Program-made: the position numbers and the translations under genes
Shown here: in pieces, positions 22,882 through 47,493 of the stretch
How positions within the stretch are numbered: position 1 is the stretch's first letter
Layout: each line of letters starts with the position of its first letter
Notes under the pieces: generated by a model
Database searches by the model: none
Told to the model about the DNA's origin: nothing
The model's input: only the letters and a program-made list of their open reading frames with translations
NCBI GenBank assembly: GCA_016291375.1
Contig: JAEEXE010000009.1
Coordinates: 1-64,000, forward strand
DNA length: 64,000 nt
Source of the DNA: Butyrivibrio sp.
Lineage (GTDB): Bacteria; Bacillota; Clostridia; Lachnospirales; Lachnospiraceae
Reading direction: 5' to 3'

Positions 22882-22888
22882 TTTCAAA

Positions 22889-29400: not shown

Positions 29401-29570
29401 GGAAGTTCATCAGTATCTCTGAATATCCTCTCTATCCTTTTAACTCCGGTCTTCTTTTGTATCTTACGCGGAATATGATAGTGCTCAAGACTTCGCTCGA
29501 TCGTAGCTGCGATCTTGTTATCAAGCTCAGCGTGTTTGTATGAAATAAATGCATTGTAGTGTGTACTCAT
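26406..29570 (-). CDS. TIR domain-TM-beta-propeller protein (copy 2)
   Basis: 1054 aa, start at ATG 29570 (MSTHYNAF), 12 bases after the zinc-ribbon gene's stop; the track's TTG at 29585 is not needed. The first 130 residues match copy 1 apart from a few changes after about residue 135, including SMWVEREIKLF with the candidate catalytic Glu. TM about 190-212. The propeller region has diverged strongly, but the C-terminal LGYFRHYTLDDLIKKAKDIL and MPQEQKDAYGIG tail is again shared. The middle is probably a ligand-sensing domain under diversification while both ends are under constraint or converted. Confidence 0.88.
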   Translation of the reverse strand: MSTHYNAFISYKHAELDNKIAATIERSLEHYHIPRKIQKKTGVKRIERIFRDTDELPITSDLSGTIAEALENADYLIVICSTNTCKSMWVEREIKLFLQNHTQDQILTVLADGEPVDVVPEILKNKEVTRINEQGIEETVLVPVEPLSCDFRIPAREAKNTELPRLAASLIGCEYNELMDRQRQYKMKRLTAVFAGILAIALGFAGYMFYSKNQINESYRASLISQSKYLANEAEKLLDSGDRIDALHLALHALPSEEMPNRPVTTEAVSAITKATLAYDPKDISNMQAIWNYEVPSTVVKMAASPDYKLFAALDKAGNFNIWDLKNNKKLAEYIPPNSFLVASNFEFLPDNKMIVVGTNFIGCLDSRTVEVIWEDYFINENLVDESINFTSDGNILLALSGGKFRVYSPADGKIVSEYTLPEEMTDDWYKSFSDFTLSSVSIGNTVLSSDNSKIAFSVYNSEEKGGICVYDIKSGKAVLEDLNADYITDISFPTADNLVVTYNMDTWGSNHTFLNTTTTQKDYDKVICFDPTDLSEKWEKEFLVTDVELNSDLINLNKNNSLAYFSGDRSEVWDLSTGEVLQEYVFADPVVYALFDEEDDRIYYVTESGGMAFSDIFNSENKDTINTVSYFIGDINNVFMGAGVFVNQRNSNSIIRYSADVYDRDWTSYEDAPETVDIYKSYLDENIAAVLTEKEGESVILDLYDPSLKKHTQSVELSDDSDEYYHMDFLGTYEGKLLLSYSRLTGGTLGLITVDYSTGEVTADRINKYYFDHIDYTDYVKYENGKIAFVEEDESKGIIVMIYDVSTGETDEYCTSEKEKCNDGGLYFFEKQGLVYLAWEQDYIVDINKNDIRSVSYDNKWDGTVCVSMNEDGTLIAASDGRDIVIKDISTVDKEDVKATISILGVETHRPVFHKEKRTNTEILIVPFTDGNLCRYNASTGELIGKTDYFTAGGPDYNSTFTVDSEHSCIYLHYSTMINIIDIDNYMDIGFVYGSLGYHAPTDTFVCTCEDEEGVNRLGYFRHYTLDDLIKKAKDILQDHEMPQEQKDAYGIG

Positions 29571-29581
29571 AAGGCGTCTTC

Positions 29582-31219
29582 TCAATATTCTTTCTTCACA
29601 TAGTTATCAAAAATAATACTATAATCCGAGATATCAAAATCAGTGTATGTGACATATTTATAAAAGTCATCAATAGGTTTAACTTCAGTACATTCATCAG
29701 TAATAGTTTTAATATTCTCATCGGAATCAATCGAAAAAAGCGTTTTTCGACCTTTGACAAAATATAACTTATCAGTATACAGATCATAAGCCGCAGACAG
29801 ATCCAAGCCGGAATCTTGCTGATATATCAAATCTGCTTTTTCATCCGTCACATGATATATCTCATTGGCCTCATTAACTGTCCATATATTTGATAAGTCA
29901 CTGTCAGCGTAGATATTTTTTATTCTATTCATTCCGTAAAGAATCTTCTTATCCGAAGCTACGCCATTTTCAAAAGTAGCCAAGTGAACATTCTCTCCGT
30001 CATGAAATACAAATTTGTACCTGCCGTCTCTTCCGCTTATCGGAACGCACTTAGTTACTCCATCATATGCAAGCGGAACTTTATTTAAATCCTTATCAAG
30101 CCAATAACGCTTGCCATCCTCAGCTACTACGCAACCCTCAAAAGTGTTGTCGTCGAACACATAAGCTTTGTCATATATATGATAGCTTTTCAGGTAGATG
30201 CCGCCTTCATCCCCATATGTTAAAAAAGAACTGTTTTTTGATTCGGGAGAATAATAACTTACTGCTCCCGATGCTCCCAGCGTCAAGAGTTTATCCATAT
30301 CACTGTTGAGGAACAGCGCCGGTTTAAGATCTGAAAATAAAGACTGCATTTCCCCCTTGTATATGCAAGATACATCACCTATTGAGTTCAACAAAAAAAC
30401 TGTTGTTCCGTCATTACTTACACTTAAGATATCAAATTGATCCGAATATAATTCTTCATATTGACAGCATGATACTTCTTTGCCATCTACCGTACTGACA
30501 ATCACCTCTGCACATATATCATCTTTGTTCAGACCTCTTTTCCTATAACAAATGTACTTTCCGTTTGGTGAAAGAACGGCTTCTTTTACAGTTTCTTCGC
30601 AACTAAATTTGCACTCTTCCTTAGTGCTTAAATCTATAACTTTAAGTTCGTATTTTCCATTTATATAATATGCGTACCCGCCATTAAAACTCATGCCAAG
30701 ATCAACCGCATGTCCTATCTTCTCAACCGACAGGTCGTTTTTTATATAATAAAGATCTTCTTCTCGATCAGTGAAAACTCCTTCGGAAGAAAACTTGTCA
30801 AAAGAAATCTTCTTTATCTTGTCCTTATACTCATCATTTACAACCCCTGCGCTGTTATAAAAAACACCGCCCTCTTCAATGATGATATCTCCGGTATATT
30901 CCACATCATCATGATCACTTGATGAAAAAAAGCTCGGAAAATTCCTATGACCATCAAATAAAGGTACGGTAAACTTAACCCCGATAATTAATACAAAAAA
31001 TGCCAATAACGATAGTCCAAGAAAAACTGCTCTTTTCTTATCTATCCTTATCTTGGGCAGCTTAAAACCGGGAATATCCTTATCGACATTTTTATTTTGT
31101 TCACTGGTTACGGATTCATTTTTTACAGGCACTTTCTCCTGTAAATAGATAGGATTGCCACACATGGGACAATGACGTGTATTCTCATTTACTTCATATC
31201 CGCAACTGCTACATTTCAT
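29582..31219 (-). CDS. Zinc-ribbon/TM/beta-propeller-like membrane protein
   Basis: 545 aa. The N-terminus is a zinc ribbon (CSSCGYEV...HCPMCGNP, two CxxC knuckles, residues 3-22). A linker and one transmembrane segment (about 66-88) follow. The remainder is a beta-rich repeat region (GGAYYINGKYELKVIDLS, PNGKYICYRKRG) of the WD40/TolB-like propeller type, probably extracytoplasmic. The plan mirrors the TIR proteins, with a zinc ribbon in place of TIR. It ends 12 bases before TIR copy 2, so the pair is probably co-translated. Confidence 0.75.
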   Translation of the reverse strand: MKCSSCGYEVNENTRHCPMCGNPIYLQEKVPVKNESVTSEQNKNVDKDIPGFKLPKIRIDKKRAVFLGLSLLAFFVLIIGVKFTVPLFDGHRNFPSFFSSSDHDDVEYTGDIIIEEGGVFYNSAGVVNDEYKDKIKKISFDKFSSEGVFTDREEDLYYIKNDLSVEKIGHAVDLGMSFNGGYAYYINGKYELKVIDLSTKEECKFSCEETVKEAVLSPNGKYICYRKRGLNKDDICAEVIVSTVDGKEVSCCQYEELYSDQFDILSVSNDGTTVFLLNSIGDVSCIYKGEMQSLFSDLKPALFLNSDMDKLLTLGASGAVSYYSPESKNSSFLTYGDEGGIYLKSYHIYDKAYVFDDNTFEGCVVAEDGKRYWLDKDLNKVPLAYDGVTKCVPISGRDGRYKFVFHDGENVHLATFENGVASDKKILYGMNRIKNIYADSDLSNIWTVNEANEIYHVTDEKADLIYQQDSGLDLSAAYDLYTDKLYFVKGRKTLFSIDSDENIKTITDECTEVKPIDDFYKYVTYTDFDISDYSIIFDNYVKKEY

Positions 31220-32665: not shown

Positions 32666-35128
32666 TTAATTACAACATTGCGCTCCCCATAATGTATCAA
32701 TCTCTGAATTCTCCGCAGCCGTTATGTCTGGTACATGTCCTCCGGTTTCCATGCTATTTAAGTTACTTACATAAGTGTATACTTTTTGTAACTCATCCAT
32801 AGAACCGCTCAGGCTTTTGTAATCTTCAGATTCAAGCGACGTTATATCAAGCCCGCCATTGACTAGTTGCTTACACAACTCAGGATTGCTCATGGCAGTA
32901 GCGTTGTTATCATCGCTCGCCCATGCATCAATAGTTGCATTGACCTCTTTAGTAAATTCAGGATCCCAATTACCAATAGCCGATAAACCATGCTGTTCAT
33001 CCGGGGTTGATGGAGTTGCCATATCTGCAAATGATCCAAGATATTCAGGTGCAACAAATCCATTATGCGGAGAACAATAAGCAATATCTCCTGCCGTTGT
33101 ATCTGTAAGATCATAGTCTATTACACACCTTCCGGCGGATCCAGATAGTCTTACCTGATAGTAATCTGCCTGTGCGTTTTGAGCATCCTCAACTCCTGTA
33201 TAAGACAAATACTTGTATGTGTCATATACTAACTGAGAAGACTGTGTGTAGTACTCCTTCGCGTCAGAAGCTGTCACGCTTTCCGTTCCATCGGAAGCAT
33301 ATTTGTAATCCAGATCGATCAGATTCTTTACATATTTGTCCATATATTTTTTATATACGTCTCCGCTAACACTTCCTTCATGATAGGAGTATGCTGCATC
33401 GTAGGCAAATGACACTGTTCCTGCTCCGGCAGCTGCATTCCCAAGCATTCCACCAGCTGCGGCTCCGCCAAGTACGAGTCCATCCTTCACGACCTTTTCT
33501 GCAAGATTTCTCTGCTCTTTCTCTGCAGCCGCGACATTTTCAGAAAAATCGGATGCGCTTAATGCTTCATCAAAGTTGCTGGCTCCGCATATATATTCTG
33601 ACGTCATAGTAAATGTCCTGCTTCCGTTATCCATCCAATAGCCATAATGGTTGATCTGATCTGTGGAGTTAATGGTAAGTACCAATCCGTCATTATAACC
33701 CACATCAGTGATTTCATACGTATGTCTTCTGTTTGATTGAAAAAAACCGTACTCTTCGTTATCTATCTGACATGATAAATAAGTAAACATGTCATTTAGA
33801 ATCATATTTTTCTTGTAGTCTCTATAAACGACCGAGTACCCCGCACAATCTTCCGCTGTTATTGCCGCTAAATAGTTACTATCCATAGCGACCATACATG
33901 ATCCCATATTTAATGCATTTATTACCTTTTCGGGATTCTCTGCTGCCAATGCGGCATTAAGCTGAGCCATGTACTCATCAGTATTTCCATATAAAGCCTC
34001 AGGTCCCTCTGCCGACTCGCCTAACATTACGGTTCCCATTATATATTTCGATACTCCATACCAGCACATAGTTTCCCCATCATCAAGTTTGTTGGTGTAT
34101 TTATTATATGCATCTGTAGCATCGCCGCTAAGCACCGCTTTAAATAATGTCATTTCTACACCATTGTTTTGATATACTATATCTTCAGCAACAATGGCTT
34201 CAGATAAGCAAGCAAGCTCCTCTAAAGTAAGAGAACTCTTACTTAAAGCATTGTTTATCTCCTCATCCGTTAATCCCATCTCATGAAGCTCACTTCTAAT
34301 AGCTCTCTGTAATACTATATTTTGCTGATCACCTTCAATTTCGGGATATTCATACGTTCTTGAAAAATCAAATGCTAGGCTAGTATCTATTACTCCCGCA
34401 AGTTTATCGCATATCGTTGTATTAAAAGCATCTACCCCGGTGACATATGTTTCAAATGAACCTAGAAGCGTATCTAATCTTGGATTCTTGTCACAATCAG
34501 TTTGAATAGCGGTACACTCCTCTGAAACATCCAATTCTTTTGCTTCTTCAGTTTCTAATTGGCTTAATATATCTAGAAGCTCGCCTTTTTTTTCTGCTAT
34601 GTTTGTAAATCTTAAAATTGCATCTTCTGTATCGGAGCTTATAACGCCACTGCTATAATATGTTTTATCCAAATATAATTCGGGGCACATTGACTGCTGT
34701 GCCCCTCCGTGTAGAGTTGCGGCCACACCTGCTGATGGGAGAACATAACCTACATATTGAGAAGATCCTTGAAGTATTTCGCAAAAATTCTCGCAACGCA
34801 ATAATAGATTCTGCGCTAAAAGTGAAGCACTACAAAGAGTTCTCCAGACAATTGTCGTCCTCTCATATAATAATTCAAATTTTGTATCCAAAAAACACTC
34901 TCCGTTACCCGTAAATTCAAAGCTTGCTTCTCCACTTGAATTATCCCTGGTTTCAGTTATATTGGTCTGAGTCTGTGTAGCCCATCCGTCAAGTGTATTT
35001 TTTAGAGAATTATACTCGTCTATCGCTTTATCAATTACATTTTTATTCAAATAAATCGTCACTTCCGAATTGGCCAGTGATATATCTCCAGTTCTTGTTA
35101 TTTTATCTTGTTCGTTATTATTCCCCAT
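32666..35128 (-). CDS. Large T7SS-module protein (LXG-like layout), copy B
   Basis: 820 aa. The N-terminal 280 residues are helical (NKNVIDKAIDEYNSLKNTLDGW onward), as in LXG-type T7SS substrates, though no clear LxG is present. About 290-325 holds GLTDEEINNALSKSSLTLEEL. A glycine-rich hydrophobic stretch (GGAAAGGMLGNAAAGAG) lies near 560-580. The C-terminal domain has RLSGSAGRCVIDYDLTD and HGLSAIGNWDPEFTKEV and ends DTLWGAQCCN. It is preceded by its own coiled-coil and WxG genes, the partner layout of T7SSb effectors. Unlike polymorphic toxins, the C-terminus is conserved between paralogues. Confidence 0.75.
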   Translation of the reverse strand: MGNNNEQDKITRTGDISLANSEVTIYLNKNVIDKAIDEYNSLKNTLDGWATQTQTNITETRDNSSGEASFEFTGNGECFLDTKFELLYERTTIVWRTLCSASLLAQNLLLRCENFCEILQGSSQYVGYVLPSAGVAATLHGGAQQSMCPELYLDKTYYSSGVISSDTEDAILRFTNIAEKKGELLDILSQLETEEAKELDVSEECTAIQTDCDKNPRLDTLLGSFETYVTGVDAFNTTICDKLAGVIDTSLAFDFSRTYEYPEIEGDQQNIVLQRAIRSELHEMGLTDEEINNALSKSSLTLEELACLSEAIVAEDIVYQNNGVEMTLFKAVLSGDATDAYNKYTNKLDDGETMCWYGVSKYIMGTVMLGESAEGPEALYGNTDEYMAQLNAALAAENPEKVINALNMGSCMVAMDSNYLAAITAEDCAGYSVVYRDYKKNMILNDMFTYLSCQIDNEEYGFFQSNRRHTYEITDVGYNDGLVLTINSTDQINHYGYWMDNGSRTFTMTSEYICGASNFDEALSASDFSENVAAAEKEQRNLAEKVVKDGLVLGGAAAGGMLGNAAAGAGTVSFAYDAAYSYHEGSVSGDVYKKYMDKYVKNLIDLDYKYASDGTESVTASDAKEYYTQSSQLVYDTYKYLSYTGVEDAQNAQADYYQVRLSGSAGRCVIDYDLTDTTAGDIAYCSPHNGFVAPEYLGSFADMATPSTPDEQHGLSAIGNWDPEFTKEVNATIDAWASDDNNATAMSNPELCKQLVNGGLDITSLESEDYKSLSGSMDELQKVYTYVSNLNSMETGGHVPDITAAENSEIDTLWGAQCCN

Positions 35129-35148
35129 TTTTATTCCTCTTAACTCTT

Positions 35149-35469
35149 TTAATGTTCTTCAACACTCACATCGTCACTTAATTCTGCATCAATATCATTA
35201 AATGTAATCTGATAGTTCCCAAGTAGATCTGCATATGTATCATAATACTTTAATGTAAAAGCTAAATATGTTGCTATTGTGTTAGCCGCAAACAAAAAAT
35301 AATCCCCTGAACTTCCAAGCCAGTGATTAGCTACTGTTATAGTATTCTCTACATATTGCTCATGCTGTGTTACTCCTTCTGCAGAAAGCCCTTCATAACT
35401 AAATTGCAAATCTATTATTTTAGAAGTATGAAGATATTTATCTCCATTCTCTACAGTAGATCTGTCCAT
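35149..35469 (-). CDS. Small WxG-motif helical protein, module B
   Basis: 106 aa. Central NHWLGSSGDYFLFAANTIATYL carries a W-x-G turn between two predicted helices, as in WXG100 and LXG-partner (Lap-type) proteins. It is clearly related to the 104-aa protein of module A (NHWIGISGDNYLGAANTIAAYL). The start follows AAAGGAGG. Encoded 20 bp upstream of the 820-aa gene; likely a targeting partner of that protein (inference from T7SSb LXG systems). Confidence 0.75.
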   Translation of the reverse strand: MDRSTVENGDKYLHTSKIIDLQFSYEGLSAEGVTQHEQYVENTITVANHWLGSSGDYFLFAANTIATYLAFTLKYYDTYADLLGNYQITFNDIDAELSDDVSVEEH

Positions 35470-35487
35470 CGTAAAAACCTCCTTTCA

Positions 35488-35847
35488 TTATCCATCCTGC
35501 TGCGCGGCAGCGGCTTCCTCCGCTGCTTTCCTCTGCTCTTCTTCCCACTCTCTTTGCTCTGCCTCAAGCCTTTCCAACAAAGCTTGAAGTTTTACCACAA
35601 GCATCGCTATTTTTCCACTTATGGATTGTGATTTAGTTCCAATTTGTCCATTCAGATCCATCATAACTGTTCTGAAATTGTACTGTGGAATCTTGACAGA
35701 ACTTCTATATGCCACATCCAAATCATTTAAATCTTCTGTAAGAGTTACATTCTCTCGAAGCATTTCTCCAACCTTATCTTGAGCATTATCTAGTCTTTCT
35801 AAATCTCGCTTCACTCTTGCAATGTCTCCACTTCTATCGCTTGCCAT
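35488..35847 (-). CDS. Coiled-coil T7SS partner protein (DUF5082-like), module B
   Basis: 119 aa, almost entirely helical. Begins MASDRSGDIARVKRDLERL; the middle motif IPQYNFRTVMMDLNGQIG matches IPQEDFKTVMLSLNEQIG in the module A protein. The C-terminal third is a charged coiled coil (EAEQREWEEEQRKAAEEAAAA). Resembles the DUF5082-type partners that accompany LXG effectors. Its AAGGAG overlaps the region just after the repaired end of the upstream broken gene. Confidence 0.72.
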   Translation of the reverse strand: MASDRSGDIARVKRDLERLDNAQDKVGEMLRENVTLTEDLNDLDVAYRSSVKIPQYNFRTVMMDLNGQIGTKSQSISGKIAMLVVKLQALLERLEAEQREWEEEQRKAAEEAAAAQQDG

Positions 35848-35862
35848 ACTTGCTCCTTTCTC

Positions 35863-36743
35863 TTAAGTATCTATAACTTTTATCACTTTACATCGATCAT
35901 TATCGAATATGATCATTTTTCTACCTACCCAACGAATTTTTATATCATCTTCTTCAGGAGTCTCAAGCTCATAGAGTAACTCCTTTTTTGAGTGGATAAT
36001 TCATTTTTGTATACTTTATTATTCTCAAAAATATACACTTCGCCTTCGTCGTATCCAATTATCCTGGATGCTCCGCCTTTTTTATTGCATAAAACTTCGG
36101 CGTCTTGCGTTTCTATGTTAAATGAAAAAAGGACTTCCCCTTGAATATCATCATTTTCAATATTTCTTAAATCAACCAAATGTCCTTTCTTATATTTATC
36201 GCCCTTAACAGAAGTAGTAATTCCATATAATCTCCCGTCACTTAAATAAAAGGAATTGGCAAAAACTGCTGCATGCTTCAAATTAAGTTCACTTAGCTCT
36301 GAAATTTCAGAACGGCGATTAGAATCATCTATGAAATAAAGCTCGTTATCCTCTGATTCCTTATCAATACCAACTTTCCTTCCATCATCTAATTCAAAGG
36401 TCGGTGGTCCAAAATACGTGTATTTATCGTATACTTCCTCTTCATCCTCCACTTCTTCCAAAGCTTGATGTTCGATATCATATCTGAATCTAGTCTTCTC
36501 TTTTCCGTTTTCAACATCAAATATCACGCTATCTTCGCTCAGTACACAATTCGAGATGAAATCATTCTCCAAATCCACTACATCATATATGGAATAAGCA
36601 GTCTCTTTATCAATGTCATAGAGAACAACTCCGCTACACTTTCTCCCTTCATACTCTGATGTGTAGCAAAAATAATTCCCTGTATCGTCATTCGGTCCGA
36701 ATCGCTCCAAGAAAACCACTCTATTATTCGATTCGTTTATACT
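35863..36743 (-). pseudogene. Broken beta-rich gene: in-frame UAG at its head and a frameshift in an A6 run
   Basis: The track gives 35940-36719 (259 aa from a GTG with no ribosome site). Two defects are visible. Upstream, the frame is continuous with the preceding lipoprotein gene except for its TAG stop; the next codons read SINESNNRVVFLER. Near the 3' end, an A6 run (35984-35989) appears slipped: the listed frame ends RLLKKMI, while the other frame reads KKELLYELETPEEDDIKIR and continues to a stop at 35863, 16 bp before the next gene with normal spacing. Beta-rich, propeller-like sequence. Could also be assembly error or phase variation. Confidence 0.65.
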
Positions 36744-37588: not shown

Positions 37589-38743
37589 TTACTCTTCACT
37601 CGGAACATCCTCAACCCAAGCAAGGCCACTGTTAAACGGGGATGCATCCTTATACTTTGGTTCTATAATCCATCCGTTCTCCACTGAATAATATCCATAT
37701 AAGCCATCTTTTTTTACAGGGACGATGCCTTCCTCGGATATATTTAGTATATCTTCATACTGACATGGCACTACCTCTTCACCTTTTGTATTGATCACGC
37801 CATCTAAGCCATCTTTATTCTTAACAGTCGCAAACCCATTAGTAAATTCTTGTGCGTTTTTATATATCGGATCTATGACATATTCCCCTTCGGTATCGAT
37901 GTATCCATACAATCCGGTTGTTTTATCTTCTACTCTTGCAAGTCCATCACTGTACAATTTTTCGTAAACAGTATATCCCGGCAGGCCGAATTTATCGTCA
38001 GATAAAGCTTGATTTTCAAGATTAATTAGTCTTGCTCCTTCTTTTTCATTTAACTGAGCAAAAGCTCTTCCTTCACGAAAATCTGTCAACCCTCTATATT
38101 GGGGTTCAATAATGTACTCACCCTTTTCGTTGATTACTCCTCTAAGCATATCCTTTGAGCATACAGTAGCTACGCCATCATCAGTGAAGGCTCTCGCTAA
38201 TATATAATCGGCTTTGATTACCATTTCTCCATCAATAGTCATGTATCCCCATAATTCTGTTTGCTTGTCCTTTATAGGAAATAGCCCATTTGCTCCCGGC
38301 GGACCAATAATATCAATAATATCAGTGACTCCATCCATGTCATACGGAATCTTTGATATTAGTTTCATCTTTTCATCCAAAATCTCAATTCCGTCATCGG
38401 TCCCACTAATGAATATAGCCTTATTGTCATATGTTCCCACTTCAACCATAGTTATCTTAAAAGAAACATCTCCAATAGCTTTACAGTTTTTATCGATAAA
38501 ATACACTTCCTTATTACCATAATTATAAGTTGGTGTTTTATCAACCCTTGCTATTCCATACCGTTTAAACACCTCCGGGTCTTCAGACTCAAAAACTTTG
38601 CTTACTTTTTCCCCTGAAATATCTATGTAATACTTACCGGATATCATATCCTTGTTGCATCCAACCAGAGTTCCTACAGCCAATATCCCTATGAATACTA
38701 TCGCTGTAACGCTTATTATAGTTTTCCTTAATTGCTTACTCAC
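37589..38743 (-). CDS. WG-repeat lipoprotein
   Basis: 384 aa. Signal peptide with lipobox LVGC (Cys29). At least four WG-type repeats, such as LWGYMTIDGEMVIKADY, GLYGYIDTEGEYVIDPIY, GLDGVINTKGEEVVPCQY and GLYGYYSVENGWIIEPKY. WG repeats form beta-rich binding surfaces of unknown ligand. The GTG start overlaps the stop of the 816-aa gene by 8 bp (CAATGTGAGTAAG), so it is translationally coupled to it and probably works with that protein. Confidence 0.85.
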   Translation of the reverse strand: MSKQLRKTIISVTAIVFIGILAVGTLVGCNKDMISGKYYIDISGEKVSKVFESEDPEVFKRYGIARVDKTPTYNYGNKEVYFIDKNCKAIGDVSFKITMVEVGTYDNKAIFISGTDDGIEILDEKMKLISKIPYDMDGVTDIIDIIGPPGANGLFPIKDKQTELWGYMTIDGEMVIKADYILARAFTDDGVATVCSKDMLRGVINEKGEYIIEPQYRGLTDFREGRAFAQLNEKEGARLINLENQALSDDKFGLPGYTVYEKLYSDGLARVEDKTTGLYGYIDTEGEYVIDPIYKNAQEFTNGFATVKNKDGLDGVINTKGEEVVPCQYEDILNISEEGIVPVKKDGLYGYYSVENGWIIEPKYKDASPFNSGLAWVEDVPSEE

Positions 38744-41186
38744 ATTGATTACCCCACAGTTCTAATATGGTACCATCAGCCTTTGCAGCCGGTTCAGGAC
38801 TTATATCAGGATCTGTTGCACAAACAGTTTTATATACCTCTTGCACTTTATTTAATGCACCGTATGTCTCTTCCAAGCAGTTATCATTTACTTTAATGAC
38901 TTCCTTTTCAACTCCGTTTACTTTTATCGTTTCCGTTTCCTTGAATGATGAAATATTATATTCTCCGCTGATGATAGCCTTGCATAAATCCGGATTCTGT
39001 ATTTGTTTACTATCTGCCCAAGCATCTATTGTATCATTCATCTTTGTTGTGAATTCTTCATTCCATTCTCCCAGCGTAGCTATACCTTTAGGATTATCTA
39101 TTGCGGCCATATATTCCGGAGCCACCATCCCATTATGAAGCGCACAAAAACGCACTTTCGCATCTTGTCCGTCAGAAAGGTCATAATCAACATAACATGC
39201 ACCAACGGAACCTACCATCTTCGTCAAAAGATGATCATGTTGATCTGCTAGAGCATCCTCCACACCTGTATACGTAAAATATTTATATGCATCAAAGGCT
39301 TCCTGTGAAATGGCAACATATTTTTCTGTATCACCTGTAGTATCTAGACTTCCCAGCTCTATGTATTTTTTTGCAAGCCTATCACCATGCGGCTTAAAAG
39401 TATCCACGCTAATATTCTCTTCATTAACACTAAAAAGCGTATCATAAGTGAGCGCACCTACTTCCGCTCCAACAGCCGGATGTCCACACTTTCCACCTAT
39501 ATATGCTCCTGAAATTACCATTCCTCCTCTAATCATTTTATTGCCAAGTTGTTTCTGTTCTAACTCTGCAGCTTCAACCAATTCTTCCATATTTCCATCA
39601 TCCAAAATATTACCCGCTGCCAATGGACCAACAATATATTGTGCGCTCATCTCGAATGGTTTATGTTCACCTTTTTTGTCTATTGAATCAATAGTTAGAG
39701 TCAATCCGCGTCCTTCAAAATATGAAGCTTCTGTGATTTTATAGTTAGGTTTATCTAAGTAGACTTCATAAATTCCTTCCTTTCCAAGTCTCGTACATCC
39801 AATATAATATTGTTTTTTCAAATAACCAAACATATCCGTCATGACACAATTCTTATGATAGTCATTAAGTAATACACCATGCAACGGAGTCCCGTTTTCA
39901 TTCATTGCTACAGCCATATTACTACTCCATGTGACTTCAACTGCTCCGTCATGGATATTATCAAGAATATCCATGGGGTTATCACATGCCAATATTGCAT
40001 TCATTTGATTTATATATTCTTCTGTATTTCCTTTTAATGCCGATTCCTCAGCACTACTATTCTCTATATATGATGTCCCCATTATGTAAGCGGCGACACC
40101 TATCCAGCATGCTTTTCCTTCACCGTTAAGCTTATCGGCATATTTATTATAGCCCTGCTTTGCATTTCCGCTAAGCACTGACTTAAACAACAGTATTTCT
40201 GTTCCACCATTATGATACAATTTATCCTCAGCATGTATAGCTTCAGCTCTCGCTGCAAGCTCTTCCAATGTTAACGAACTCTTATTTATAGCATTTTTTA
40301 TTTCTTCATCTGTTAGTCCCATCTCATGAAGTTCAGCCATAAGTACAGCATTCAAGATCATGTTCTCTTCTTCCGGATCGATCTCCGGATATTCATATGT
40401 TCTTGTGTTATCAAAAGCATTCGCGGTTACTATTATCTTTGAAAAGTCATCACTTATTGTTGTATTAAAATTATTAATGCCTAAAACATAATCACAAAAA
40501 GCCTTATAGAGTTTTGTTAATCTTACCCGCTTTTTGCAGTCATCTTCTATTGCCTCACATTCTGCCGAAATATCAAGTTTTCTTACCTTTAGATGACTAA
40601 GCAGCTCTACAAGTTCATCTTTTTGTGTTGATATATTTTTATAATTTGAGACCGCATCCTCAGTATCTGTTGATAAAGAGCCGCCTCCTTCACCATAATA
40701 TGCCTTGTTTAAATAAAGTTCAGAACACATCGGAGTCTTCTGGGTCGCCACATTTGGCGAAAAATAAACCGACACCCCAGCTGTAGGTAAAATCTGTCCT
40801 GAATATTCTTCATTTCCTTGCAGTATTTCGTAGAAACTCTCACAAAGAAGTAATAATTCTTTCGCCATATCTGAAGCCAGTCTCATTGTTTGTGTCGCAC
40901 TTACTGTTTTATGCTTCAGTTCAGCATACTCGGTACAATTATGCAAATCCTCTGCAAAAGTGAGTGCCTGACTCGCATCTCCATCCGAGCTATCTTCTAA
41001 ATCTTTTTTTCCAGATTGTGCAAGCTCTTGCCATCCATCAAGCACTCCCTTTATTGTCACATAATCATCTATTGTTGCATCGAGATAATCCTTATGAAGC
41101 CAAAGTTCGACTGTAGAATTATCAAGAGAATTTTCTTCTGTTCTATTTACCTTATCAATTGTATCTGTTGTATTCTTCTTCCCCAT
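38736..41186 (-). CDS. Large T7SS-module protein (LXG-like layout), copy A
   Basis: 816 aa paralogue of the 820-aa protein. Helical N-terminus (HKDYLDATIDDYVTIKGVLDGW), EMGLTDEEIKNAINKSSLTLEEL near 290-320, a glycine-rich segment (GGMVISGAYIGGKCG) near 550, then KMVGSVGACYVDYDLSDG and GIATLGEWNEEFTTKM, ending TILELWGNQCE. Homology extends along the whole length, so this is not a toxin with a swapped C-terminus. Preceded by its coiled-coil and WxG partners and coupled to the WG-repeat lipoprotein. Probable T7SS substrate or surface component; activity unknown. Confidence 0.75.
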   Translation of the reverse strand: MGKKNTTDTIDKVNRTEENSLDNSTVELWLHKDYLDATIDDYVTIKGVLDGWQELAQSGKKDLEDSSDGDASQALTFAEDLHNCTEYAELKHKTVSATQTMRLASDMAKELLLLCESFYEILQGNEEYSGQILPTAGVSVYFSPNVATQKTPMCSELYLNKAYYGEGGGSLSTDTEDAVSNYKNISTQKDELVELLSHLKVRKLDISAECEAIEDDCKKRVRLTKLYKAFCDYVLGINNFNTTISDDFSKIIVTANAFDNTRTYEYPEIDPEEENMILNAVLMAELHEMGLTDEEIKNAINKSSLTLEELAARAEAIHAEDKLYHNGGTEILLFKSVLSGNAKQGYNKYADKLNGEGKACWIGVAAYIMGTSYIENSSAEESALKGNTEEYINQMNAILACDNPMDILDNIHDGAVEVTWSSNMAVAMNENGTPLHGVLLNDYHKNCVMTDMFGYLKKQYYIGCTRLGKEGIYEVYLDKPNYKITEASYFEGRGLTLTIDSIDKKGEHKPFEMSAQYIVGPLAAGNILDDGNMEELVEAAELEQKQLGNKMIRGGMVISGAYIGGKCGHPAVGAEVGALTYDTLFSVNEENISVDTFKPHGDRLAKKYIELGSLDTTGDTEKYVAISQEAFDAYKYFTYTGVEDALADQHDHLLTKMVGSVGACYVDYDLSDGQDAKVRFCALHNGMVAPEYMAAIDNPKGIATLGEWNEEFTTKMNDTIDAWADSKQIQNPDLCKAIISGEYNISSFKETETIKVNGVEKEVIKVNDNCLEETYGALNKVQEVYKTVCATDPDISPEPAAKADGTILELWGNQCE

Positions 41187-41218
41187 TATTCTTCCTCTAG
41201 TTATAATCGTTATAATAA

Positions 41219-41533
41219 TTATTTTTCTTCAACACCTAGATTTTTCGATAATACTTCGTCTACCGATTTAAAATCAAATTGATAATCGCCTAACAGCTCC
41301 GAGTATTTAGCAAAAAAATACATAGTACGCGCCAAGTAAGCCGCTATTGTATTGGCCGCGCCCAAATAGTTATCTCCGGATATACCTATCCAGTGATTTG
41401 CCATAGTTATTGTATTATCTACATAAGTTTCATGTTCAGCCTCTACATTGGATGATAATCCCTCGAAACTATATTCGACCCTACCTGTTATAAGCGGATC
41501 TTGATATATTGTTTCAGCAACTTTTTTGTCCAT
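41219..41533 (-). CDS. Small WxG-motif helical protein, module A
   Basis: 104 aa. NHWIGISGDNYLGAANTIAAYL carries the W-x-G turn between two helices, and the N-terminus (RVEYSFEGLSSNVEAEHETYVDNTI) matches the module B protein. Start behind GGAAGAGG. It lies 32 bp upstream of the 816-aa gene. Probable helical partner for secretion. Confidence 0.75.
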   Translation of the reverse strand: MDKKVAETIYQDPLITGRVEYSFEGLSSNVEAEHETYVDNTITMANHWIGISGDNYLGAANTIAAYLARTMYFFAKYSELLGDYQFDFKSVDEVLSKNLGVEEK

Positions 41534-41552
41534 TATTAATTACCTCTTCCTT

Positions 41553-41921
41553 TTATCCGGATTGTTGTCCTTCTCGCTGTTCCTCAGCTCTTTGCTGAGC
41601 CTGGCGTTGTTCTTCTTCCCACTGTGCTTGCTCTGCCAATAATTCTTGTAAATAATCATTGAGCCACGATACCAGTTCTGTTATCTTACTATTTATAGTA
41701 GTTATAGATGGTCCAATCTGTTCATTCAAAGAAAGCATAACTGTCTTGAAATCTTCCTGTGGTATCTTGGCTGAAGCTTCATAATTACTTCCAAGTTCGG
41801 TAAGATCAGTAGTTATCAAAATATTCTCCGCAGACATGGGACCTAGCCTCATCGCTGCTCTTCCTAACAGATTTAAATCATGATATACATCCTCTATATC
41901 TCCACTTCTATCTCGTGCCAT
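41553..41921 (-). CDS. Coiled-coil T7SS partner protein (DUF5082-like), module A
   Basis: 122 aa. MARDRSGDIEDVYHDLNLL and IPQEDFKTVMLSLNEQIG align with the module B partner; the C-terminal coiled coil is QAQWEEEQRQAQQRAEEQ. Start behind AGGAG with only 4-nt spacing. A GC-rich hairpin separates it from the esx-like genes upstream, so its expression may be set lower than theirs. Confidence 0.72.
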   Translation of the reverse strand: MARDRSGDIEDVYHDLNLLGRAAMRLGPMSAENILITTDLTELGSNYEASAKIPQEDFKTVMLSLNEQIGPSITTINSKITELVSWLNDYLQELLAEQAQWEEEQRQAQQRAEEQREGQQSG

Positions 41922-41939: not shown

Positions 41940-41962
41940 TGGCGGCGGCAACGCCGCCGCCA
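41940..41962 (-). promoter_or_regulatory. GC-only hairpin between the WXG genes and module A
   Basis: GGCGGCGGC-AAC-GCCGCCGCC, a perfect 9-bp GC stem in an AT-rich island, placed 5 bp after the stop of the WXG-like gene. On the minus strand the tail is AAATTAAAAAAGG, without a T tract, so it is not a standard terminator. It fits an RNA 3'-end stabiliser or attenuating structure that would let the WXG genes be made in excess. Confidence 0.65.
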
Positions 41963-41966
41963 TAAA

Positions 41967-42293
41967 TTATGCTTCTACGTAAAAATTAAGATCAATTCCA
42001 TCTTCGATAAGTGAATTATCAACTGCTTTTCCGGTTCTAGCCGCTTCATCGAGCGCCAGTCCAACTTGATTAATTTTTTCCGGATATTTCCCAACAAGTT
42101 CCCTTGATTGATTATATTTAGTCAAAAAATCTCCACGAGCTTGACCTGCAATCGAGTTTAAAACTTGAGTGTTCATTATTTCGTCAAGTGTTCCTAAAAG
42201 TGTTGAAAGATTTCCGGCCAACGATTGATATGCTCCCGCCTGAGACTCCAAATTACCCGGGGTATAACTAATAGGTGTTAAACTTATTTCCAT
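41967..42293 (-). CDS. WXG100-like protein lacking the Trp
   Basis: 108 aa, two-helix WXG100 size and pattern. The central turn reads LNSIAGQARGDFLTKYNQS where WXG100 proteins have W-x-G, so the Trp is replaced by Ile-Ala-Gly. Second gene after EssC, 12 bp past the true WXG100 gene; may form a heterodimer with it, as EsxA/EsxB pairs do. Start behind AAAGGAG. Confidence 0.75.
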   Translation of the reverse strand: MEISLTPISYTPGNLESQAGAYQSLAGNLSTLLGTLDEIMNTQVLNSIAGQARGDFLTKYNQSRELVGKYPEKINQVGLALDEAARTGKAVDNSLIEDGIDLNFYVEA

Positions 42294-42305: not shown

Positions 42306-42656
42306 TCAACTAGGCATTCCCATACCGTTTAAACTAAGTACTCTCGCAACATTTTCTCGAGTAGCAGCATCTGCAACTGAATATGCGTCAATTGAATCCT
42401 GAGAATGATCACGTAAACATTCTGCATAATGAATCATATTATACATGGCATCTGCCAATTGCTGATATGAAGTTGTAAACTGATCCGCTGCACCACCAAG
42501 CCAATCATTAATCACCTGATCTCTCACGTCGATTAACTGGTTATTCCAACCAGTGAATTCAGACTTCATGTCTTCAAGATTGCCTACAGCAACCTTCATT
42601 GTTCCTCCATCTACTCCGACTGTATCTTCTCTTGTTGCATCAAATTGTCCAGCCAT
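42306..42656 (-). CDS. WXG100-family secreted protein (EsxA-like)
   Basis: 116 aa. Helix-turn-helix with the canonical motif NDWLGGAADQFTTSYQQL (about 49-66) and no signal peptide. Downstream Y-x-x-x-D/E-like positions are uncertain. Directly after essC (62 bp), which is typical for T7SS substrates. Start behind AAAGGAG. Likely exported by the EssC machine. Confidence 0.9.
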   Translation of the reverse strand: MAGQFDATREDTVGVDGGTMKVAVGNLEDMKSEFTGWNNQLIDVRDQVINDWLGGAADQFTTSYQQLADAMYNMIHYAECLRDHSQDSIDAYSVADAATRENVARVLSLNGMGMPS

Positions 42657-42718
42657 TTCTTTTTTCTCCTTTCCTTTACATTATAGTTGTATTATTGAAA
42701 AGCCTTTATCGGCACATT

Positions 42719-45700
42719 TCAACCTGTTTTATTAAATACGGTTTTAAGTTTATAAAAATTGTTATTTTCTAACAGATATGCTTCTCCCGGTTCTATCTTT
42801 TTGTGATATTTCTTTCTCAAAGCCGTCATCTGATCAATGACATGTTGCTCACTATAATTCTCAAACGCCATCGCGCTTTTCTCCTCTCGAACAAGCCTTA
42901 AGAATTCACATATACCCGGCACTCCCACAAGCACCTCACAATCAAGAATAGTCATAAATATTTTTTCATTCTTGAATTTGTTAAACAACCGCTTGTATAT
43001 TTCCAACATATCTCTTCTGATCGACAGCCCCTGATAATAGTCTGCGGAATTAAGAAGCAAGAAAGCTAATCTATCATTCCGTGTTCTATTCTTTAGATTC
43101 TCCTCCATCCTACTGTGTATTTCCTTGATCGCATCATCAAACACTTCTTCTTCCGACGTGTATACCTTGACGACTTCAAGCTTCTCAAGATTCCTAAACG
43201 TTCCTTTATAATCATCAAGAATATATATATCTACAGGTGCATTTTCTCTATTGTCGTTCATATAATTCATCCAATAATTTATAAACGACCTTCTTCCCGA
43301 ATGTTGCTTTCCGGCTATAGCCAGCGATATATTGTCAATCATATTAAAAGTTACCGGCTTTATTGTATTGAAGCTTACTCCAAACGGTATCTGGTATCTT
43401 CCGGGTTTCTCTTCATACATGGATGCTATTATCTCCGGAGAAACAATTTCCGGAACTTCAGGAATAGCAGCGCTGGTTGAAGATGCATAACGTGTATTTA
43501 CCTCCTCTATAAACTTTGTTATAAGCTCTTTGCGCTCTATCTCCTTTTCTGCATCGAATGTAAGATATGTTTGCGCCTCATAATACAATCTGTCTTTCTG
43601 ATATACCATTCTTCCCGGTACATTATCAGGCATTAATTTACAATGCTCAAATACCATTCCCATCTCAGTCTTATCATTAACAGCAAAAGAATATCTGTTA
43701 TTAAAGCATGCCAAAAGCCTAAATCCAAATACCGAAGACAGCGAACTTGTAAGAACAAACACTACTCCCATCGCTGCTCCTTCTCTTACAAGAACAGTAA
43801 GTTGATCAACATATTCTGGGCATTCTCCTCGGAACGCACTATAGTTATCGATCAATATGATTTCTTGAGGGAGCTCTCGATATCCGGCTTCTCTGTATGA
43901 ACTAAATGAACTAAGACCGAGCTTAGATAATATTTCTTTTCTTTCCTCTATATCTTTCTTGATAAGCTTAAACAAATTTGCAAGCTTCTCATCATCAGCC
44001 GGTTTTACTACGCCGCCTACATGTTTTAGCTCTGAGTAGTTAGCAAGGAATCCTGTTCCAAAATCAAGAATATATATCCTTGCATCTTCCGGAGTATATC
44101 TTTCTGCAATACCTCTTATTATCAGCTGCAACATATTTGTCTTACCGGTCTGTGATGAACCTATAATCAAGGCATTACCGCTTGATAAATTAAGCGAGAG
44201 CGTTCCTTGCTTCTGACTTGCCGGATCATCATATATTCCAAGCGGAACCAAAATATCACTTCCGTCTTCATCAAGTATTTCTGCGTTATACGGTATTACT
44301 TCCTCAAGCGCCGGCATACATATGGGACTAAGCTTTGCAATATTCTCTTTTTTACAATAATCACCTATATACTGTATAAGAGCTTCGAGCTGTGTTTCTC
44401 CTCCTTCTACTTTTTCAGGTTTCTGTTCGTATACAACTTCCCTTTTGCCTGAAAGATCAACTTTGCAAATATCAAATGCTCTTGCCTCATCAACGTTCTT
44501 AATAGTTGATGACTCGCCACTATAGCCTGACTGGAACAATTCAAATATCTCATTGTTTCCTACCTGGAGATATGCTCTTCCGGGTTCTCTTATCTCTGCA
44601 GCAAGCGGGGATTTAAGAACCTCGTTACTGTCTGTCTTCTCCTGCACCTTCAAACAAATCCTAAATCTCGAGTTACTCCAAATCTGATCGTTTACAACAC
44701 CTGCAGGCTTCTGAGTAGCTAATATTAGATGTACCCCCAAGCTTCGTCCGATTCGCGCTGTACTGATAAGTTCTTTCATGAACTCAGGCTGATCGGTCTT
44801 GAGCTCGGCAAACTCGTCGACTATCAGGATGAGGTGCGGTAAAGGTGTCTTTGCCACTCCGTCTCGAAACAGTTTTATGTAATCATCTATTCTGTTGACG
44901 TCATACTGTGCAAACAGCATCTGACGTTTAACAAGCTCTGCATGAATTGATGTAAGCGAACGGTCTATCTGCTTTCCGTCAATGTTTGTTATTGCTCCGT
45001 TTAGATGTGGAAGGTTCCTGAACTGATTCGCCATGCCACCACCCTTAAAGTCAATAAGAACAAACCCAAGCTCATAAGGATGGAACAATGTTGCAAGTGT
45101 TATTATGTATGTCTGTAACAGTTCACTCTTACCGGAACCGGTAGTACCTGCCACTAATCCGTGAGGTCCGTGATATTTCTCATGGATATCAAGCGTCATT
45201 GTCTTTCCGCTTGCAAGTACTCCTATGGGTGCTGCGATACTATCCCAGATTCTGCTCTCACGCCATCTCTTTCCAAGATCAAGCTCATATGCACTCATGA
45301 TATGCATGATCTCATACAGTGAAATATGCTTGGTCAATGAACTTTCCAAACTCACTTCATCTATATAAACAGGAGCCAGCTTAAGTGCCGCTTCCGCAAC
45401 CCTGCTCTGCGGTTCATGTATATATGCAAAACGCTGTTCTTTCATGCCATCCTGCACGCTCTGTATCACGCCCGCATTCTCTCTGGTATCAAGATACACC
45501 TTCTGCTCTACCGAATAATGCAGCATCTCTTCTTGTTCTTCGAAGAAGATAAATGAAAATCCCAATGAATTGGCTCTTTCCGCATACTTCAAAACAGGAT
45601 GTCCGCTGATCATCTCAGAGCGATACACGAACACAACGAAATTCGGTCTTCCCGCTGCATCATCCATAAGCTCTCTTGATGATAACTCGGAATACAAGAA

Positions 45701-47230
45701 TTGCAGCGCAACTTTTTTGGACTCTTCATCATAAATAAAATACCTAAGACCCTCATCGCTTTCCATATTGGGAATCCATCTAGCCCAAGAAAAAAGCGGA
45801 ACATCATCTTCGCTCATGATGAAAAACATCTTTGTTTCCTGTTCAAAATGTTGTCCGGCTATGCCTATCATCATATTTTTGGCAAACTGATAAAGTTTAT
45901 TTCTGGTACCAATCACTCCTACAGCATTCGTAGTCGCCAAAGGGAGCTGTATTGGCATATCATCAAGATACTTGTATTTTTTACTCATTTCCTCAGGATA
46001 TTCTTGGAGATTATCCCCAGTGTCTATTGTATCCTGATCCTTAAAAGCTATCTGGTTATAAGCCGGTCTTCTTCCGGTTCCAACCCATATGCTAAGATAA
46101 TCCGCATGTCCTCTTTTCCTTTCAAACAGACGTGCATCAAATCTTTCTATGAACTGAATAACATTATCAAGAGAAGGCATCATCTTTTCACATATGTTTT
46201 GCTCTTCCTCCTGAAGCTTTTGTATCTCTACTTCTTTTCTATCAATGTATTCATTGTATTTTTCAATTCGTTCTATCTTCTGTTTTCTAACGTTTTTCTT
46301 TCCTGTAAAATATGTAACGATCGACATTATGACGCTCATTCCCATACTCGCGCCAAAATAGATCATGTACATTCCGTTAGATCCCATCATGCTTCTTACA
46401 CTTATCATGACTACAAGCATGATCACCATAGGTAGAATACTAGCTATAAGATTGGTATTCCCGTCTGACGGAATTGGCTGTGGTGGCAAAACCTCAACCT
46501 GTGTATCGGGAATGACATATAATTGTCTTGGATTTTTAATAAATAGAGGGTATTTAAAATGATTGCTATGCTGCTTTTTTATGACCCTTTTAAGCGTTGT
46601 CTCAATCTCTGCATCAGTGCATGTGTAAATGCAATCTGATTCAATGTAGAATATTATTCCACATATCCCCACAAAATCCCCTTGAAAAACTTCTACACAT
46701 CCTTCCCTTATAACATATCCATTTACTTCAACTCCATATCTGTAATTTCTCAGATCTAGTTTGTAACATTCTCCTATTCTGTTCAGTAAGATTGTTCCGC
46801 CCTTAAAGTTGTCTTTTTTTATTCGAATGTCGTTATCACTCAAGCTTCCGATTGTAACTTGCTTTCCTTCCGGAATTGCAAGCCCCAGATCATAATTCTC
46901 CTGAGCAAGTTCATAGTCTATTGTGAAATCGATTGAGAGAAATTCTATTCCTGTTTTTTCAAAGGAAATAACTATTCGTTCTCCCAGTTGTAAATTACAT
47001 AACTTATCACCTGAAGATTTACTTGATGATATGCTTGCGTTGTTGCTACAATACGCAACATACCTATCGTCCATCTTTTCTATGTCCACTCTGAATTCTT
47101 CATTAAAGGATTTCTTTGAAAATCTGACATGACAATTCTTCTCAGTTCCGATACTGATCAGCCCCATGCTCTCATCAAAGCGAACTTCTTTATATAAATT
47201 GTCCCCATATATCGTAATTTTGTAATTCAT
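42719..47230 (-). CDS. essC: T7SS ATPase EssC (FtsK/SpoIIIE family)
   Basis: 1503 aa motor of the type VII system. The N-terminal 215 residues hold two FHA-like folds (ISIGTEKNCHVRFS; VTIGSLSDNDIRIK). Two membrane segments lie near 263-310. Three P-loop domains follow: D1 GTTGSGKSELLQTYI near 697 with Walker B LILIVDEFAEL; D2 GSSQTGKTNMLQLII near 1027; D3 GKQHSGRRSF near 1308 with Arg in place of the Walker Lys. Start 2 bp past the YukD-like stop. C-terminal sequences of EssC usually specify substrates, consistent with the module genes downstream. Confidence 0.95.
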   Translation of the reverse strand: MNYKITIYGDNLYKEVRFDESMGLISIGTEKNCHVRFSKKSFNEEFRVDIEKMDDRYVAYCSNNASISSSKSSGDKLCNLQLGERIVISFEKTGIEFLSIDFTIDYELAQENYDLGLAIPEGKQVTIGSLSDNDIRIKKDNFKGGTILLNRIGECYKLDLRNYRYGVEVNGYVIREGCVEVFQGDFVGICGIIFYIESDCIYTCTDAEIETTLKRVIKKQHSNHFKYPLFIKNPRQLYVIPDTQVEVLPPQPIPSDGNTNLIASILPMVIMLVVMISVRSMMGSNGMYMIYFGASMGMSVIMSIVTYFTGKKNVRKQKIERIEKYNEYIDRKEVEIQKLQEEEQNICEKMMPSLDNVIQFIERFDARLFERKRGHADYLSIWVGTGRRPAYNQIAFKDQDTIDTGDNLQEYPEEMSKKYKYLDDMPIQLPLATTNAVGVIGTRNKLYQFAKNMMIGIAGQHFEQETKMFFIMSEDDVPLFSWARWIPNMESDEGLRYFIYDEESKKVALQFLYSELSSRELMDDAAGRPNFVVFVYRSEMISGHPVLKYAERANSLGFSFIFFEEQEEMLHYSVEQKVYLDTRENAGVIQSVQDGMKEQRFAYIHEPQSRVAEAALKLAPVYIDEVSLESSLTKHISLYEIMHIMSAYELDLGKRWRESRIWDSIAAPIGVLASGKTMTLDIHEKYHGPHGLVAGTTGSGKSELLQTYIITLATLFHPYELGFVLIDFKGGGMANQFRNLPHLNGAITNIDGKQIDRSLTSIHAELVKRQMLFAQYDVNRIDDYIKLFRDGVAKTPLPHLILIVDEFAELKTDQPEFMKELISTARIGRSLGVHLILATQKPAGVVNDQIWSNSRFRICLKVQEKTDSNEVLKSPLAAEIREPGRAYLQVGNNEIFELFQSGYSGESSTIKNVDEARAFDICKVDLSGKREVVYEQKPEKVEGGETQLEALIQYIGDYCKKENIAKLSPICMPALEEVIPYNAEILDEDGSDILVPLGIYDDPASQKQGTLSLNLSSGNALIIGSSQTGKTNMLQLIIRGIAERYTPEDARIYILDFGTGFLANYSELKHVGGVVKPADDEKLANLFKLIKKDIEERKEILSKLGLSSFSSYREAGYRELPQEIILIDNYSAFRGECPEYVDQLTVLVREGAAMGVVFVLTSSLSSVFGFRLLACFNNRYSFAVNDKTEMGMVFEHCKLMPDNVPGRMVYQKDRLYYEAQTYLTFDAEKEIERKELITKFIEEVNTRYASSTSAAIPEVPEIVSPEIIASMYEEKPGRYQIPFGVSFNTIKPVTFNMIDNISLAIAGKQHSGRRSFINYWMNYMNDNRENAPVDIYILDDYKGTFRNLEKLEVVKVYTSEEEVFDDAIKEIHSRMEENLKNRTRNDRLAFLLLNSADYYQGLSIRRDMLEIYKRLFNKFKNEKIFMTILDCEVLVGVPGICEFLRLVREEKSAMAFENYSEQHVIDQMTALRKKYHKKIEPGEAYLLENNNFYKLKTVFNKTG

Positions 47231-47232
47231 AA

Positions 47233-47493
47233 TCAGCCATTCCTTCGAGAATAGATAATCTTTGTCCCCTGATACAAACGATATTCTTCTATTGTAGTAT
47301 CGCCTCTTAATAGTGCCGTGGGATTTTCACTTCTTAAATAACAATCCTCAGGATCATTCATTTTAATACCCAAATTAAATCCCTTATTCAGTCCATAGAT
47401 AAGTTCGTTTGCTGATATGTTCACCGGAATCTCTATATCATATTCACTGTTTCTTTCAGGTATGGAAAAAATAACAACAATCTTGTCTTTCAT
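47233..47493 (-). CDS. YukD/EsaB-like ubiquitin-fold protein
   Basis: 86 aa. Pattern IVVIFSIPERNSEYDIEIPVNISANELI, then NPTALLRGDTTIEEYRLYQGTKIIY, matches the beta-grasp T7SS accessory family YukD. It sits immediately upstream of essC with a 2-bp gap. Family members are needed for T7SS function in Bacillus and staphylococci; no conjugation activity is expected. Confidence 0.85.
   Translation of the reverse strand: MKDKIVVIFSIPERNSEYDIEIPVNISANELIYGLNKGFNLGIKMNDPEDCYLRSENPTALLRGDTTIEEYRLYQGTKIIYSRRNG

What the first reader, a model, noticed from the sequence alone, without database searches (positions are those of the whole stretch)
41940..41962. Isolated 9-bp all-GC hairpin between WXG genes and modules
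GGCGGCGGC-AAC-GCCGCCGCC stands out in AT-rich surroundings and has no T tract. Located right after the WXG gene pair, it could stabilise the upstream mRNA end and reduce read-through, giving WXG proteins in excess over modules.
Basis: partly seen in the sequence, partly recalled or inferred. Interest (0 to 1): 0.55.

Follow-up and report, generated by a model that had tools for sequence, protein, structure and literature searches.

The report
RNA hairpin splitting a secretion operon
A very stable RNA hairpin sits in the same place in every related gene cluster examined, right after the paired genes for small secreted (WXG) proteins and before the genes for larger effector-like proteins; it most likely lets the cell make more of the small proteins from one shared transcript, a known kind of device that I found no report of for this secretion system.

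Summary
The hairpin is real. On the coding (minus) strand, 41962-41940, it is a perfect 10-bp stem (nine G-C pairs) with a GUU loop, -22 kcal/mol, unique in the 3.0-Mb assembly. It lies in a 45-nt gap inside a type VIIb secretion operon, 4 nt after the stop of the second WXG gene and before an unpaired Shine-Dalgarno. Neither strand has a U-tract.

It is not chance. All nine WXG-pair loci found in the genus (Butyrivibrio) without using the hairpin as bait have a -17 to -23 kcal/mol hairpin in this gap; the neighbouring gaps have none or weak ones. The nearest relative keeps the stem sequence. Six others share a different hairpin with an invariant U-GUCA[A/C]A-G loop and a heavily covarying stem, absent from Rfam, which also occurs between solute-binding-protein and permease genes. 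A duplicate module downstream in the window lacks the hairpin, so it goes with the WXG 3' end.

Best reading: a stabiliser/processing stem-loop, as in clostridial SRPS operons, raising WXG mRNA over the effector module. Leaky termination is not excluded, and no expression data exist here.

The parts
41940..41962 (-). 10-bp stem-loop (nine G-C pairs, GUU loop), -22 kcal/mol
   Evidence: unique in genome
41922..41966 (-). 45-nt gap between WXG2 and the next gene; stem starts 4 nt after the stop; Shine-Dalgarno AGGAG around 41930-41926 is unpaired
41967..42293 (-). WXG2, WXG100-like protein, 108 aa
   Evidence: PF06013 E 1.7e-6; TIGR03930 below cut-off
42306..42656 (-). WXG1, WXG100-like protein, 116 aa
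   Evidence: PF06013 E 2.7e-5, just below cut-off
42719..47230 (-). EssC, type VIIb secretion ATPase, 1503 aa
   Evidence: TIGR03928 1123 bits, above cut-off
47233..47493 (-). YukD/EsaB-like, 86 aa
   Evidence: PF08817 E 1.1e-5, just below cut-off
41553..41921 (-). first gene of effector module 1, 122 aa, small helical-looking (Lap-like by position)
   Evidence: 48% identical orthologue in the nearest relative; layout as in PMC10765036
41219..41533 (-). second gene of module 1, 104 aa
   Evidence: no family match
38736..41186 (-). large protein of module 1, 816 aa (LXG-effector-like by position only)
   Evidence: 39% identical to the large protein of module 2; no family match
35848..35939 (-). 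internal control: gap in front of paralogous module 2, no comparable hairpin
   Evidence: -12.0 kcal/mol, 22 of 200 shuffles as good

Best explanation
The hairpin is an intercistronic 3'-end stabiliser/processing stem-loop of the WXG pair. The operon is transcribed through EssC, WXG1, WXG2 and the effector module. After a cut, or 3'-5' decay, in the downstream part, the upstream message ends at the very stable stem, which blocks 3' exonucleases. WXG mRNA then outlasts and outnumbers module mRNA, so small WXG proteins are made in excess of the large module proteins. Shown here: position, stability, lack of a U-tract, positional conservation, covariation in relatives, recurrence of such hairpins at transporter binding-protein/permease junctions. 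Inferred: co-transcription, the cut, the exonuclease block and the resulting ratio.
For: 9 of 9 WXG-pair loci of the genus found without the hairpin as bait have it; the two neighbouring gaps do not. Stem kept in the nearest relative while loop and flanks differ. Strong covariation in six relatives. Paralogous module 2 lacks it, so it goes with WXG and not with the module leader. No U-tract, few U: 'stabiliser' by the published rules. The strongest gap hairpins of the same genome also sit at SBP-permease and DctP-DctQ junctions, and relatives' loop-conserved hairpin sits at SBP-permease junctions. WXG pair codon adaptation above EssC and next gene in 8 of 8 loci. In S. aureus esxA mRNA is about 100 times essC (PMC4285178).
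Against: No expression, 3'-end or half-life data. Focal WXG2 has low codon adaptation (0.29) and the focal pair barely exceeds EssC. The stem starts only 4 nt after the stop codon, so a terminating ribosome may partly open it. Type IV stem-loops with hardly any U still gave truncated transcripts in R. cellulolyticum (PMC9045158).
Confidence: 0.6

Rival explanations
1. Leaky internal transcription terminator: polymerase releases at the strong hairpin in a fraction of passes, so fewer transcripts reach the modules. The ratio is the same but the step is transcriptional.
For: Stem-loops after SBP genes in cellulolytic clostridia, including types with little U, gave prematurely ended transcripts in a two-reporter operon (PMC9045158). 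Some relatives' hairpins are followed by 3-5 U in 8. S. aureus has a predicted terminator with partial read-through after esxA.
Against: The focal hairpin is followed by AATTAAAA and the nearest relative's by TGAAATAA, no U-tract; the terminator scan does not report it.
Confidence: 0.22
2. 5' element of the downstream module: the hairpin caps a processed module mRNA against 5' decay, or tunes translation of the 122-aa gene.
For: It lies 18 nt upstream of that gene's start and close to its Shine-Dalgarno.
Against: The paralogous module 2 has no such hairpin in its leader; the Shine-Dalgarno is unpaired in the fold; across loci the upstream neighbour is constant while the downstream gene varies, for example in L004.
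Confidence: 0.1
3. Non-functional GC-triplet palindrome, for example from slippage or a mobile-element remnant.
For: The sequence is a (GGC)3/(GCC)3 repeat and this subtype is found in only two species.
Against: Single copy, kept in place and in stem sequence in a relative whose WXG proteins are only about half identical, and some hairpin is present at the site in 9 of 9 loci.
Confidence: 0.05

Closest known systems
[quoted passage not shown] cip-cel of Clostridium (Ruminiclostridium) cellulolyticum (PMC4423207, PMC8219983)
   Same: Strong stem-loop in an intra-operon gap, directly 3' of the gene expected in excess, no poly-U, energy in the reported range (-6.6 to -31.8 kcal/mol)
   Different: Here no processing site or transcript ratio is measured; a secretion operon rather than cellulosome, ATP synthase or ABC operons
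Internal terminators after SBP genes in ABC importer operons of cellulolytic clostridia (PMC9045158)
   Same: Stem-loop between an excess product and downstream genes; long GC-rich stem with low U
   Different: The focal hairpin has no U-rich tract; the first gene is a WXG pair rather than an SBP
esxA-esaA intergenic terminator and esxA excess in Staphylococcus aureus (PMC4285178)
   Same: Structure directly downstream of a WXG100 gene, WXG mRNA in large excess over essC
   Different: Predicted rho-independent terminator plus own promoter, at the start of the locus; here mid-operon, after EssC, without U-tract
REP elements in E. coli operons such as malE-malF (from memory, not checked here)
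   Same: Hairpin between a highly and a weakly expressed cistron
   Different: REPs are dispersed repeats; this is single copy
Loop-conserved U-GUCA[A/C]A-G hairpin of other Butyrivibrio T7SS loci (found here, alignments A4/A5)
   Same: Same site after the WXG pair, similar stem length and energy
   Different: The focal hairpin has a GUU triloop and a GC-triplet stem; the covariance model does not hit the focal genome

Membership tests
SRPS stabiliser stem-loop (SSL) | Stable stem-loop in a same-strand gap, 3' of the upstream gene | tested here: met
   45-nt gap, -22 kcal/mol, z below -3.7; operon inferred from strand and spacing
SRPS stabiliser stem-loop (SSL) | U content at most 5 and no poly-U tail over 3 (rule in PMC8219983) | tested here: met
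   Two U in the hairpin loop and two in the 8 nt after it
SRPS stabiliser stem-loop (SSL) | Post-transcriptional processed 3' end at the stem | not testable with these tools
   Needs 3'-end mapping
SRPS stabiliser stem-loop (SSL) | Upstream transcript more abundant than downstream | not testable with these tools
   Only indirect: codon adaptation of WXG pair above neighbours, weak in the focal locus
Intrinsic (rho-independent) terminator | U-tract directly after the stem | tested here: not met
   AATTAAAA on the coding strand, ATAAATTA on the other
Loop-conserved U-GUCA[A/C]A-G hairpin of Butyrivibrio (models R1, R2) | Invariant loop U-GUCA[A/C]A-G | tested here: not met
   Loop is GUU; no R1 hit in the own genome at E 0.5
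Dispersed repeat (REP/MITE-like) | Many copies in the genome | tested here: not met
   One copy
Any Rfam 15 family | Score above gathering threshold | tested here: not met
   0 matches in the window and eight related loci

The most novel reading that the evidence does not exclude
Butyrivibrio uses a dedicated stoichiometry RNA element: a hairpin with invariant loop U-GUCA[A/C]A-G and freely covarying stem, placed after WXG pairs and solute-binding-protein genes and read by a specific RNA-binding protein or ribonuclease. The focal GC-triplet hairpin is a loop-divergent replacement of it at the same site.
Probability: 0.2. Interest if true: 0.6.

Novelty: new member of a known kind. Interest (0 to 1): 0.4.

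Why it matters
If right, type VII secretion operons of these rumen bacteria set the WXG-to-effector ratio with an RNA stem inside one operon rather than with separate promoters, and the ratio can be tested by editing one stem. The loop-conserved hairpin found in the relatives is a concrete, searchable RNA motif shared by secretion and transport operons of the genus and not held in Rfam.

Tried and rejected
Intrinsic terminator: rejected for lack of a U-tract, kept only as a leaky-terminator rival. Repeat family: single copy. Known RNA family: no Rfam match. Module leader: Shine-Dalgarno free, and module 2 lacks the hairpin. The WXG1 profile in the wider family gave mostly unrelated T7SS clusters. 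The genome-contig scan gave three loci, all from the same genus. Model R2 in 397 family genomes gave one hit, with no clear operon context, but only 18 candidates per genome were scored, so restriction to the genus is suggestive, not proven. No ribosomal L2 gene was found in this assembly, so codon adaptation used ribosomal genes of five relatives. Literature search for an intercistronic hairpin in a T7SS operon gave only a mycobacterial 5'-UTR study, where a double stem-loop upstream of esxB did not confer stability (PMC11728522).

Full report
Observation. The sequence is as described. On the coding strand the gap reads TAA-TTTA-TGGCGGCGGC-GTT-GCCGCCGCCA-AATTAAAAAAGGAGAGAT-ATG: stop codon of WXG2, stem-loop, Shine-Dalgarno, start of the 122-aa gene. 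The stem is 10 bp with a weak A/U extension, -22.3 kcal/mol, and none of 200 shuffles folds as well. It is unique in the assembled genome. In a 228-kb sample of that genome it is the only gap of 25-60 nt, out of 31, with a hairpin below -15 kcal/mol. There is no T-tract after the stem on either strand.

Setting. The operon runs on the minus strand: a large surface protein, a protein with FHA domain and signal peptide, an FHA protein, a MinD-like ATPase, a YukD-like protein, EssC (TIGR03928, above cut-off), two WXG100-like genes, the hairpin, then a module of two small genes and an 816-aa protein. Two small genes before an LXG effector is the layout described for Lap-LXG modules (PMC10765036); no family model hits these three proteins, so 'Lap' and 'LXG' are positional labels only. 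A second, paralogous module (first gene 50% identical, large protein 39% identical) starts at 35847.

Comparative test. The genus is Butyrivibrio, judging from record titles of its relatives. An EssC C-terminal search of all 79 genus genomes gave 19 loci. Eight of them continue EssC-WXG1-WXG2-next gene. All eight have a strong hairpin in the WXG2-next gap (-17.6 to -22.7 kcal/mol for the hairpin alone), while the EssC-WXG1 and WXG1-WXG2 gaps have none or weak ones. A ninth locus, L004, found by WXG2 protein search, has its own 14-pair stem of different sequence (-17.8). Against 5 of 58 other gaps of up to 100 nt in the focal genome sample, 9 of 9 gives a Fisher p of about 5e-8; the loci are related and from different genomes, so the figure is only a guide. 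Two looser relatives with a single WXG gene (L005, L006) also have a strong stem right after it, as do three more distant family loci after their WXG pair (L045, L046, L050).

Covariation. The nearest relative (L003/L011, Butyrivibrio sp. INlla18) keeps GGCGGCGGC...GCCGCCGC with a different loop and flanks. Six loci share a different hairpin: a GUCAAA or GUCACA loop closed by U-G on a 12-13 bp stem in which 10 of 13 pairs show changes on both sides (covariation 0.87, against 0.33 shuffled and at most 0.29 slid). With hits of a covariance model the set grows to 19, with 12 of 13 pairs changing on both sides (0.97 against 0.27); the 13 extra rows were found with the model and lean towards it. 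No Rfam family matches.

Where else the loop-conserved hairpin sits. Beyond the training loci, strong hits (E up to 2.3e-4) fall after WXG genes (L059, L060, L072), between SBP and permease genes (L058, L061, L062, L075), between a surface protein and a module gene (L070), and in three other places (L063, L069, L074). Pfam confirms binding protein and permease for L058 and L061. In the focal genome the list of strongest gap hairpins, made without regard to gene function, includes two amino-acid SBP-permease junctions and a DctP-DctQ junction. These are operons whose first product is needed in excess, and in cellulolytic clostridia stem-loops at SBP junctions lower the downstream genes (PMC9045158).

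Which gene does it serve? Module 2 is homologous to module 1, but its leader gap has no comparable hairpin (-12.0 kcal/mol, 22 of 200 shuffles as good). Across loci the constant neighbour is the WXG pair, not the downstream gene. The element therefore goes with the WXG 3' end. Independent, indirect support for WXG excess: averaged codon adaptation of the WXG pair exceeds that of EssC and of the next gene in 8 of 8 loci (p 0.008), but focal WXG2 alone is low and the focal margin over EssC is tiny.

Mechanism. By published rules the stem is a stabiliser (few U, no poly-U; PMC8219983). In C. cellulolyticum such stems at processed 3' ends go with higher upstream transcript levels, and 28 of 33 lack a U run (PMC4423207). 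I therefore favour 3' stabilisation of a processed or decaying operon transcript (0.6), with leaky termination as the main rival (0.22). Expression, 3' ends and half-lives are not known here.

Verdict. A real, conserved, functional-looking intercistronic hairpin of a known kind, in a setting (a type VII secretion operon) for which I found no report in the papers searched. The more novel part is the loop-conserved hairpin of its relatives; the focal hairpin is its positional analogue, not a member.

Noticed in passing
L037 3187-3218, L039 3133-3164, L042 3131-3162, L044 816-847 (-), L029 3206-3237 and the other rows of alignment A5: Hairpin with invariant loop U-GUCA[A/C]A-G and covarying stem after WXG pairs and between SBP and permease genes in Butyrivibrio; no Rfam match.
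   Followed up: partly
window 32666-35847 and 38736-41921: Two paralogous effector-like modules in tandem (two small genes plus an 816/820-aa protein, 39% identical), each followed by different genes.
   Followed up: partly
window 19753-22887 and 26406-29585: Two near-identical large proteins starting MSTHYNAFISYKHAELDNK (TIR-like look, not tested) at the far end of the module region.
   Followed up: no
window 42657-42718, and the matching gap in L027 and L029: The EssC-WXG1 gap of the three most similar loci holds a short GC hairpin followed by TTCAATA; a possible promoter or conserved element in front of WXG1.
   Followed up: no
window 20001-43000: GC falls from about 44% to 33-38% over the module and WXG region, which may mark horizontally acquired DNA.
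   Followed up: no
L070 1501-1532 (-): The loop-conserved hairpin also follows a surface-protein gene (membrane-anchor-like C-terminus) that precedes a secretion-module-like gene.
   Followed up: partly
L040 (G011:C54:91621-92628): One EssC relative carries an in-frame TAA within the matched region.
   Followed up: no
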